Positions 14,029-49,384 of a stretch of DNA of 61,559 bases are shown here, piece after piece; position 1 is the stretch's first letter, and each line of letters opens with the position of its first letter. Under the pieces are notes generated by a model. That model saw nothing but the letters and a program-made list of their open reading frames with translations. It had not been told where the DNA came from and did not search any database. This stretch comes from an uncultured Erysipelotrichaceae bacterium. GTDB taxonomy: Bacteria > Bacillota_I > Bacilli_A > Erysipelotrichales > Erysipelotrichaceae. Location: contig CASEPS010000006.1 of the NCBI GenBank assembly GCA_949289855.1, positions 1 to 61,559 of the forward strand, given 5' to 3'. A program made the position numbers and the translations under genes.

Positions 14029-14238
14029 AGCGTCCCCATGCAAGGACGCTGAATAAACGTGGTACCACCTTTGCTTACTTCTCAATATGCTTAACGCGCA
14101 CCATACGAAACTGCTTACTGTGACTTTCGGCAGTCTGGCTGCTGGATGACTTCGTGTGTATTCCCGGTTCTGCTTGCACCAACCGCAGACTCTCTAAGCG
14201 CGTTCTGTACACAGTACTCGTTCCATCAATCGCCTTGA
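14029..14238 (-). ncRNA. T-box riboswitch (valine) of valS
   Basis: The leader carries the T-box sequence AAGGTGGTACCACG (14071-14058), then the terminator stem AGCGTCC/GGACGCT with its T-rich tail (14050-14021). Stem I shows the 5' GAGTA and the 3' GAA that form the specifier-loop S-turn, with GTC (14150-14148, a valine codon) directly after GAA, and an AGAGAG element in the upper stem. Uncharged tRNA-Val would pair with GTC and with the T-box bulge and stabilise the antiterminator, allowing valS transcription. Confidence 0.93.
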
Positions 14239-14242
14239 AAAG

Positions 14243-48138: not shown

Positions 48139-48147
48139 AACACAGGC

Positions 48148-48156
48148 ATTTTAGCA
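48148..48156 (-). promoter_or_regulatory. extended -10 promoter of the lspA-rluD operon
   Basis: TGC-TAAAAT on the minus strand (48156-48148), 9 nt before ATG at 48138; near-leaderless. Confidence 0.6.
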
Positions 48157-48171
48157 TACTAAGGACAAAAC

Positions 48172-48187
48172 AAGTAGACTTCCACTT
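48172..48187 (-). terminator. weak terminator after the RHH gene
   Basis: Short stem AAGTAG/CCACTT (one G-U pair) with a tetraloop, followed on the minus strand by GTTTTG. Confidence 0.4.
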
Positions 48188-48219
48188 TTGAATTGATGCA
48201 GCAGACAATAGCCAGAGTA

Positions 48220-48441
48220 TCAGTCTTTGCTTTCCAATGGTAATCCAGAAGCCTTTTCGATTGTTTCTTCCATAGCTTTTCTGATAACTTCAGATTGAGA
48301 GACGCCAAGCTTTTTGCAGGCTTCTTTGAATGCAAGAACAAAATCCGTCTTGTACGAAACAGAAACCTGTTTCATGTTTTGTTTCTGCCACTCTGCCATG
48401 TACTTAGCCTGATTGAATTCTCCACTTGTTTTTTTAGGCAT
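48220..48441 (-). CDS. small ribbon-helix-helix DNA-binding protein
   Basis: A 73-residue basic protein. After a polar N-terminus (MPKKTSGEFNQAKYMAEWQKQ) comes a ribbon-helix-helix unit: strand KQVSVSYK, helix FVLAFKEACKKLG, turn VSQSE, helix VIRKAMEETIEKA. Proteins of this type are antitoxins or regulators of plasmids and integrative elements. Its ATG overlaps the end of a 56-residue membrane protein gene, with TGGAGG 9 nt upstream. It is the last gene of a small locus with a structured leader. DNA-binding role is inferred. Confidence 0.75.
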   Translation of the reverse strand: MPKKTSGEFNQAKYMAEWQKQNMKQVSVSYKTDFVLAFKEACKKLGVSQSEVIRKAMEETIEKASGLPLESKD

Positions 48442-48604
48442 TTTTATTAAACCTCCAATTCATGAATGAGAAGATAATGAACAATACCGCAAAGAACAGA
48501 ATCAGATAATCGATCATCTGAAGATCTGTCAAAGACATTGTGGTGATTGTGGCAATCGTAGAAGCGACTGCAGAAAAGAAAATGTTTCTATTTGTGTTCC
48601 TCAT
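48434..48604 (-). CDS. 56-residue two-helix membrane protein overlapping the RHH gene
   Basis: A 56-codon frame starting MRNTNRNIFFSAVAST, with two hydrophobic segments (about 8-24 and 33-48: YLILFFAVLFIIFSF) and a basic tail WRFNKNA. The stop lies inside the RHH gene (8-bp overlap). No Shine-Dalgarno sequence is seen; the start follows a strong hairpin. Size and topology resemble small hydrophobic toxins or holin-like peptides, but no family is recognised. Translation is uncertain. Confidence 0.5.
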   Translation of the reverse strand: MRNTNRNIFFSAVASTIATITTMSLTDLQMIDYLILFFAVLFIIFSFMNWRFNKNA

Positions 48605-48746
48605 GGTCTATAACGTGGGTGAAAGAGGTGGGAGTTTTCACTCCCTGTCCTCTACTTATTTGTTCCGGTTATTCCACTTATGTATTGCGTAGCAAGCACT
48701 GAACACAAAGCAGATTAACTGGAACTCTTTTATTATTCACCCACAT
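48605..48746 (-). ncRNA. structured leader RNA (or MITE-like repeat) upstream of small membrane/RHH genes
   Basis: Nested complementary segments on the minus strand: GTGGGTGA..AAGAG (48744 downward) with CTCTT..TCACCCAC (48625-48613); inside it GTTCCaGTTA with TAACcGGAAC; inside that CTT-TGTGT with ATACA-AAG; and a separate hairpin AGAGG..GGGAGT-GAAA-ACTCCC..CCTCT with a GNRA loop (48654-48628). The last hairpin and the outer helix compete for the same CCTCTT segment. This could be a regulatory leader, or the ends of a 130-bp palindromic element. Confidence 0.5.
48678..48746 (-). CDS. possible 22-residue leader peptide
   Basis: A 22-codon frame (MWVNNKRVPVNLLCVQCLLRNT) with a very strong Shine-Dalgarno sequence, AGGGAGG 7 nt before ATG, and a good promoter 25 bp upstream. 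Its first codons form the 5' arm of the outer helix of the structured leader, so ribosomes on it would change RNA folding. No homologue is known to me. Confidence 0.4.
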   Translation of the reverse strand: MWVNNKRVPVNLLCVQCLLRNT

Positions 48747-48771
48747 CTTAGCACCTCCCTTTTCTCACATA

Positions 48772-48800
48772 ATTATACTGTTCACTGTCCTAATCAACAA
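48772..48800 (-). promoter_or_regulatory. promoter of the structured-leader locus
   Basis: Minus strand: TTGTTG (48800-48795), 17-bp spacer, TATAAT (48777-48772). Confidence 0.65.
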
Positions 48801-48889
48801 ACAACACAGCGTACTACTGCAGCAACTCCAATCTTCCTTCAAGACATAACTGAGAACCGGAAGAAAAAGCACTTCTGTATCAGGAAATA

Positions 48890-49139
48890 TGACACTTCAA
48901 ACAGGCTATTGATTATCAGAAAAAGTATGATGATATTAAAACTGTTTCTCAGGAAGTATAGATTGAAAGACTTCAAGGACCATGTAAAGATAATCTTGAC
49001 AGGGTAGGAATCAATGAAGACAATGTGGGTGAAAAAGTAAGTGAGTATTCTGTGAAGTTTTATTTTTCGAACAGTTATGATGAAGTAGAAGCAGAATATT
49101 ACGGCTTACATTGGAAGGATGAATATGTGCAGGTTAAGT
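48890..49139 (+). pseudogene. decayed coding remnant
   Basis: Plus strand reads as protein-like sequence (HFKQAIDYQKKYDDIK, then after an in-frame TAG IERLQGPCKDNLDRVGINED, then SYDEVEAEYYGLHWKDEYVQVK and stop). It has no usable ATG at its beginning and contains a TAG at about 48958. The composition is lysine/glutamate-rich and unlike the flanking noncoding DNA. I infer the 3' end of a lost gene. The 90 bp before it (48800-48890) shows nothing I can name. Confidence 0.45.
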
Positions 49140-49298
49140 GAAATTCCAGAAGAAATAGAGGAAGCGTTCCGGTTGTCTAAACCATATGTAGAATTCGTTG
49201 GAAATAAACATTATGCACGAATTAGAGAGGACGCGCCTCAAAATGTGCAAGAAGCATACAAAAAGTTTCATGATTTTTATTGGAGTCTTGAACAGTAA
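49125..49298 (+). CDS. 57-residue hypothetical protein
   Basis: A short frame (MCRLSEIPEEIEEAFRLSKPYVE...ending FHDFYWSLEQ) that overlaps the 3' end of the decayed remnant, with GGAAGGA 6 nt before ATG and a clean terminator 26 bp after the stop. These signals suggest a transcribed unit. It may be the surviving last gene of a decayed accessory operon. Function unknown. Confidence 0.5.
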   Translation: MCRLSEIPEEIEEAFRLSKPYVEFVGNKHYARIREDAPQNVQEAYKKFHDFYWSLEQ

Positions 49299-49323
49299 CT
49301 AATATGACAAAATTTGTGATTTA

Positions 49324-49345
49324 AGCACCTTCGTGGTGCTTTTTG
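49324..49345 (+). terminator. terminator on plus strand
   Basis: Stem AGCACC/GGTGCT with TTCGT loop, followed by TTTTTG. Confidence 0.8.
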
Positions 49346-49352
49346 TTTCTAA

Positions 49353-49384
49353 AAGAAAAAAGAGACTTCTTTCTGAAATCTCTT
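49353..49384 (-). terminator. terminator of TSCPD gene
   Basis: 10-bp stem AAGAGACTTC/GAAATCTCTT (49360-49369, 49375-49384; one G-U pair), followed on the minus strand by TTTTTCTTTT. Overlaps the stop codon. Confidence 0.8.

What the first reader, a model, noticed from the sequence alone, without database searches (positions are those of the whole stretch)
48605..48800. Structured leader or palindromic element upstream of a tiny membrane protein and RHH gene
A good promoter and very strong ribosome-binding site lead into a 22-codon frame whose 5' end pairs with sequence just before the next gene. Three nested helices plus a competing GNRA-capped hairpin span about 130 nt. The competition over CCTCTT resembles an attenuator or translational switch. 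Alternatively the outer repeats (CTA..GTGGGTGAA at both ends) are the termini of a MITE.
Basis: seen in the sequence. Interest (0 to 1): 0.66.

Follow-up and report, generated by a model that had tools for sequence, protein, structure and literature searches.

The report
Decayed phage toxin gene with antisense RNA
The folded stretch looks like a stranded, partly broken copy of a small phage-borne cassette in which a tiny membrane peptide (a likely toxin) is overlapped end to end by an opposing RNA gene (its likely antidote), a layout that also explains a Listeria small RNA (rli48) for which we found no assigned function.

Summary
The structure is real (minus-strand fold z -6.7) and single copy, so it is not a MITE. 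The 22-codon frame is not the conserved one. In the nearest relative (G004) and 21 other divergent cassettes the same stretch encodes a 26-47 aa transmembrane peptide (ORF1). It is followed by a hairpin, usually a second tiny membrane protein (ORF2), and the RHH gene, mostly at prophage edges. The window's ORF1 carries a 1-nt frameshift. In most other cassettes the opposite strand holds an RNA gene: an extended -10 promoter just past the hairpin and an intrinsic terminator inside the first codons of ORF1. The mRNA also pairs its Shine-Dalgarno/start region with the stretch after the hairpin. Rfam's Listeria sRNA rli48 gives sub-threshold, full-length matches on exactly this antisense strand in three cassettes, one of them the window. 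The complement of rli48 encodes an ORF1 peptide beside attP/int in Listeria phages. Best reading: a candidate type I toxin-antitoxin cassette with a DNA-binding third gene. The window copy sits in a roughly 1.15-kb island, with ORF1 broken and the operator gone, so it is probably decayed. Toxicity and neutralisation are untested.

The parts
48140..49382 (.). Island of about 1.15 kb between the 169-aa gene and the TSCPD gene that holds the cassette plus a decayed stretch
   Evidence: Most relatives with both genes have them about 30-110 bp apart
48772..48777 (-). -10 element (TATAAT) of the sense promoter; weak -35; palindromic operator of the relatives is absent here
   Evidence: Sequence; promoter comparison
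48752..48759 (-). Shine-Dalgarno sequence GGGAGGTG of ORF1
   Evidence: Sequence
48656..48744 (-). Remnant of ORF1 (membrane peptide, likely toxin): GTG start 48744-48742, conserved frame from 48736 to TAA 48658-48656, with a 1-nt frameshift in between
   Evidence: Alignment with G004, IIKEFQLICFVFSACYAIHKWNNRNK versus IIKIFQLIYYVFSACYAIYKWNHREDK
48678..48746 (-).
   Evidence: ATG frame stops after 4 codons in G004
48736..48747 (-). 5' side of outer helix (start region of ORF1)
   Evidence: Fold; swap test
48612..48623 (-). 3' side of outer helix, just past the terminal hairpin
   Evidence: Fold; swap test
48662..48725 (-). Central helix inside ORF1; on the plus strand it is the hairpin of the antisense terminator
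   Evidence: Fold; terminator scan
48624..48653 (-). GAAA-capped terminal hairpin after the ORF1 stop
   Evidence: Fold
48609..48614 (+). Candidate antisense -10 (TATAAC), weak in the window
   Evidence: Antisense promoter scan: window score no better than chance (p 0.28), strong in most relatives
48620..48737 (+). Predicted antisense RNA gene (rli48-like), ending in the U-tract TTTTATTATT 48728-48737
   Evidence: Terminator scan; full-length sub-threshold rli48 match at 48602-48756 +
48434..48604 (-). ORF2, 56-aa membrane protein
   Evidence: Relative in G004, E 6.5e-7; no family at its cut-off
48220..48441 (-). Third gene, 73-aa RHH (Arc/CopG-like) protein
   Evidence: RHH_3 20.3 bits versus cut-off 21.6; Arc-like PHROG E 7e-5

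Best explanation
It is a decayed copy of a prophage cassette of Firmicutes that works like a type I toxin-antitoxin locus. Sense strand: an operator-controlled promoter drives an mRNA for a 26-47 aa membrane peptide (ORF1, likely toxin), then usually ORF2 (a second tiny membrane protein) and a small DNA-binding gene (RHH here, phrog_2277 in other phages). The 5' end of the mRNA folds back: the SD/start region pairs with the stretch just past a hairpin at the ORF1 stop, which should keep ORF1 untranslated. Antisense strand: an extended -10 promoter just past that hairpin fires an RNA of about 110-130 nt through ORF1, ending at a terminator built into ORF1's first codons. It should bind the mRNA and silence the peptide. 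The third gene probably represses the sense promoter at the palindrome between -35 and -10. Shown here by computation: gene order, structures, antisense promoter and terminator signals, palindromes, breakage of ORF1. From the literature: rli48 and rli98 are both expressed in Listeria. Inferred: toxicity, antisense neutralisation, autoregulation. In the window, ORF1 is frameshifted, the operator is lost and the antisense promoter is weak, so the toxin part is probably dead while ORF2 and RHH remain open.
For: Fold z -6.65; mean fold z -4.1 over 22 divergent cassettes; cognate outer-helix energy -16.3 versus -13.6 +/- 0.55 swapped, 0 of 20,000 permutations; antisense promoter score 11.0 versus 9.0 in shuffles and 8.7 on the sense strand, 17 of 23 at p < 0.05; antisense terminator at ORF1 +13 to +30 in 20 of 23; palindromic operators in most cassettes; prophage-edge location; rli48 full-length on the antisense strand in three cassettes and the only match in this genome; complement of rli48 encodes an ORF1 in Listeria phages beside attP/int, with ORF2 and a third gene; Listeria, Streptococcus and Clostridiaceae loci, not used to form the idea, show the antisense promoter (p 0.000, 0.006, 0.002, 0.054) and folds z -3.6 to -5.5; rli98 and rli48 are a reported antisense pair (PMC4179725), both induced intracellularly (PMC6786865); ORF1 broken with ORF2 and RHH kept in the window, L022, L055, L035 and L038.
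Against: No toxicity or neutralisation data. rli48 matches are far below the gathering score (20-28 versus 100 bits). Antisense promoter is not above chance in 6 of 23 cassettes, the window and G004 among them. The scoring of promoters and terminators was designed after looking at the sequences; only four loci are held out, two of them close relatives. The third gene is not part of classical type I systems.
Confidence: 0.72

Rival explanations
1. Cis-acting leader (attenuator or translational switch) that controls ORF2 and RHH through translation of a leader peptide.
For: Strong nested structure in front of ORF2; SD/start pairing; ORF1 precedes ORF2 in one predicted mRNA.
Against: No U-run after the sense hairpin; the 22-codon peptide is not conserved; the leader idea does not explain the antisense promoter and terminator or rli48.
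Confidence: 0.1
2. Protein (type II-like) toxin-antitoxin pair of ORF2 and RHH, with the leader only a regulator.
For: RHH proteins are common type II antitoxins; ORF2 and RHH stay open where ORF1 is broken.
Against: RHH also occurs without ORF2; the third gene is replaced by an unrelated family in Listeria phages, so a specific ORF2-RHH contact is unlikely; antisense gene unexplained.
Confidence: 0.08
3. The antisense RNA is the functional product (for example a trans-acting phage sRNA) and ORF1 is incidental.
For: rli48 was described as an sRNA; ORF1 is lost in several loci.
Against: ORF1 is intact with SD and hydrophobic segment in 22 divergent cassettes; window versus G004 differences lean to third codon positions (3, 3, 7).
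Confidence: 0.07
4. Termini of a MITE.
For: Inverted repeats of 16 nt.
Against: Single copy in the genome; the repeats are the start-sequestering helix, whose two sides match each other better than those of other loci.
Confidence: 0.01

Closest known systems
Listeria sRNA rli48 (RF01479) and its antisense partner rli98
   Same: Antisense gene over a 33-aa membrane ORF1, hairpin after the stop, ORF2 and a small third gene, phage location beside attP/int
   Different: Third gene is phrog_2277 instead of RHH; ORF1 intact; sequence similarity to the window far below the Rfam cut-off
yonT/SR6 with yoyJ of B. subtilis prophage SPbeta (type I toxin-antitoxin)
   Same: Prophage; small toxin and a second, weaker toxin gene on one mRNA; antisense RNA overlapping the toxin gene (PMC5848175, abstract)
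   Different: SR6 overlaps the 3' end of yonT and the 5' end of yoyJ, whereas here the RNA is nested in ORF1; no RHH-type third gene described in that abstract
C. difficile prophage type I toxin-antitoxin modules (for example CD2907.1-RCd9)
   Different: No ORF2 or DNA-binding gene found by term search in that review; no sequence relation tested beyond family libraries
hok/sok fold-back inhibition
   Same: Fold-back of the toxin mRNA that hides the start site (own knowledge)
   Different: No sequence relation found; different gene order (own knowledge)

Membership tests
Type I toxin-antitoxin system | Small hydrophobic peptide gene with ribosome-binding site | tested here: met
   26-47 aa, hydrophobic segment, good SD in 22 cassettes; in the window itself the frame is broken
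Type I toxin-antitoxin system | Antisense RNA gene overlapping the toxin gene | tested here: met
   By sequence signals only: promoter and terminator above chance in most cassettes; weak promoter in the window. Expression of rli48 and rli98 is from the literature
Type I toxin-antitoxin system | Toxin mRNA start region hidden by structure | tested here: met
   Swap test 0 of 20,000; this feature is common, not obligatory
Type I toxin-antitoxin system | Toxicity of the peptide and its relief by the RNA | not testable with these tools
   Needs expression experiments
rli48 (RF01479) | Score over the Rfam gathering cut-off (100 bits) | tested here: not met
   20.5 bits window, 27.2 L014, 28.5 L044
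MITE | Several copies in the genome | tested here: not met
   One match in G000
Transcription attenuator | Sense-strand terminator hairpin with U-run | tested here: not met
   Hairpin followed by ACCUCUUUCACC
RHH (Arc/CopG) regulators | Profile match for the third gene | tested here: inconclusive
   RHH_3 20.3 bits, just under the cut-off of 21.6; Arc-like PHROG E 7e-5

The most novel reading that the evidence does not exclude
A widespread family of prophage addiction or immunity cassettes in which an antisense antitoxin gene is nested in the toxin gene, and an exchangeable DNA-binding protein (RHH or phrog_2277) represses the toxin promoter. That would be a two-layer (RNA plus protein) antitoxin system, with rli48/rli98 of Listeria as its first expressed example.
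Probability: 0.45. Interest if true: 0.75.

Novelty: new variant of a known kind. Interest (0 to 1): 0.62.

Why it matters
It proposes a function for the Rfam sRNA family rli48 (with rli98), for which we found no assigned role, and joins it to unannotated phage cassettes in Erysipelotrichales, Listeria, Streptococcus and Clostridia. The peptides are very short and match no Pfam, NCBIfam or PHROG family convincingly, so the family is easily missed. The prediction can be tested directly in laboratory strains, and it bears on how temperate phages keep themselves and on what expressed phage sRNAs do.

Tried and rejected
MITE. Attenuator (no sense U-tract). 22-codon leader peptide (not conserved). 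Known families: ORF1 and ORF2 match nothing at cut-off in Pfam or NCBIfam and nothing convincing in PHROGs or PADLOC. Window DNA in plasmids and RHH protein in phage and plasmid records: no match. The first genome-contig scan with the single RHH protein found nothing; the alignment did. RHH family outside the order: none in sampled class and phylum genomes. RHH versus phrog_2277 profile comparison: no real similarity (hhalign probability 3%). MAFFT-based pair counting of window versus G004 is limited by misaligned hairpins (38 of 54 pairs kept, 4 changed on both sides), so the swap test was used instead.

Full report
Observation. The features lie on the minus strand. The promoter, strong SD, 22-codon frame, outer helix, central helix and GAAA hairpin are all present. 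The 176-nt segment folds at -63 kcal/mol against -36.3 +/- 4.0 for shuffles (z -6.65); the plus strand folds at z -5.8. The element occurs once in the 2.33-Mb genome. Rfam finds nothing over its cut-offs here.

Relatives. Protein searches with the RHH gene found relatives in 26 of 315 genomes of the order, in 23 viral contigs and in 12 named genome records, mostly Solobacterium, Bulleidia and other Erysipelotrichales. Samples of the class and phylum gave hits in the same order only. The nearest relative, G004, has the same arrangement. There the stretch encodes a 30-aa membrane peptide (MDDIIKIFQLIYYVFSACYAIYKWNHREDK) starting at the GTG inside ATGTGG. The window has the same peptide frame with one base fewer just after the start, so the reading is broken; the 22-codon frame is what the ATG then reads. 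Twenty-one further cassettes have an intact ORF1 of 26-47 aa with a good SD, a hairpin over or after its stop, a second tiny membrane protein in most, and the RHH gene. In viral contigs the cassette lies beside a tyrosine or serine integrase or beyond the endolysin; in bacterial genomes it is often near tRNA genes.

Structure. Segments from the ORF1 SD to about 60 nt past its stop have a mean z of -4.1 over the 22 cassettes, and most fold as the same three-way junction. The energy of pairing between SD/start region and post-hairpin stretch is -16.3 kcal/mol for true partners and -13.6 +/- 0.55 when partners are swapped between loci (0 of 20,000 permutations). It stays so without the window and without a near-duplicate, and the ORF1 interior of the same loci gives only -8.6. 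Because swapped partners keep the common SD and anti-SD letters, this is evidence for co-evolution of the two sides.

Antisense gene. Reading the opposite strand, I noticed TGN-TATAAT just past the hairpin in most cassettes. A simple score gives 11.0 on the antisense strand, 9.0 in shuffles and 8.7 on the sense strand; 17 of 23 have p < 0.05. A hairpin plus U-tract on the antisense strand ends at ORF1 +13 to +30 in 20 of 23; it consists of the central helix and the A-rich first codons of ORF1. Most sense promoters carry a palindrome of the form CATAnTAnnnnTAnTATG between -35 and -10, perfect over 18 bases or more in L040, L041, L042, L061 and L072. The window lacks it, and its antisense -10 (TATAAC) is no better than chance.

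rli48. A permissive Rfam scan put the Listeria sRNA rli48 full length (1-149/149) on the antisense strand of the window element, L014 and L044. In the whole genome the window element is the only match up to E 10 (E 0.41). The E-values alone are not significant; what counts is the full-length placement on exactly the predicted gene in three loci. The Rfam consensus, reverse-complemented, reads GTG AAA GAT GTT ... = MKDVLEEIKTVLEIVTLAVALITLRKRDKNKDK. It matches 16 Listeria phage records. There the order is ORF1, hairpin, ORF2 of 46 aa, a 69-aa gene of phrog_2277, with attP and integrase on the other side. Related arrangements lie in S. suis phage Javan565 (no ORF2 seen) and on a Clostridiaceae plasmid. 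These loci were not used to form the hypothesis. Their antisense promoter p-values are 0.000, 0.006, 0.002 and 0.054, and their folds z -3.6 to -5.5; two of the four are close relatives of each other. The literature held lists rli98 and rli48 as an antisense pair (PMC4179725), reports both as induced during intracellular growth (PMC6786865), and describes rli48 as often gained and lost (PMC5689173). I found no statement there that they are a toxin-antitoxin pair.

The window copy. In most relatives with both genes, the TSCPD gene and the 169-aa gene are about 30-110 bp apart; in the window they are 1.24 kb apart. The cassette and a decayed stretch fill the gap. Three other relatives hold unrelated genes at this junction, so it is a variable site. 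No integrase was seen among the frames next to it. With ORF1 frameshifted, the operator gone and the antisense promoter weak, this copy has probably lost its toxin function; ORF2 and RHH are open. ORF1 is also broken in L022 (frameshift at a run of A), L055 (stop codon), L035 (no start) and L038 (promoter and SD lost).

Mechanism and limits. The type I reading explains the antisense gene, the hidden start site, the prophage location and the loss of ORF1. Toxicity, neutralisation and repression by the third gene are inferences. The role of ORF2 is open; a second weak toxin as in yonT/yoyJ (PMC5848175) or an immunity factor are both possible. A sequencing error in the window assembly cannot be excluded, though the missing base is not in a homopolymer.

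Noticed in passing
window 14039-14239 (-): T-box leader over the Rfam cut-off (104.8 bits).
   Followed up: no
window 48780-49320 (+): Decayed stretch beside the cassette with a frame fragment ending at 49140 and a 59-aa frame (49119-49298) without family match.
   Followed up: partly
L094, L096, L099 (TSCPD to 169-aa gene junction): Other relatives hold different genes at the same junction (a zinc-ribbon-like protein; a thioredoxin-like lipoprotein), so the site is variable.
   Followed up: partly
L117 (Listeria phage B025) 3107-3711: The record annotates gp29, gp30 and gp31 on the strand opposite to the cassette genes, so gp31 covers the rli48 strand; probably wrong-strand annotation.
   Followed up: no
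L121 (Listeria phage FHC15313-PLM26) 567-1803: Anti-CRISPR genes AcrIIA1-3 lie directly beside the cassette.
   Followed up: no
L016 2144-2270 (-): DUF3800-I RNA motif (RF02969, 78 bits) next to the cassette; a DUF3800 gene also neighbours it in Listeria phage LP-030-2.
   Followed up: no
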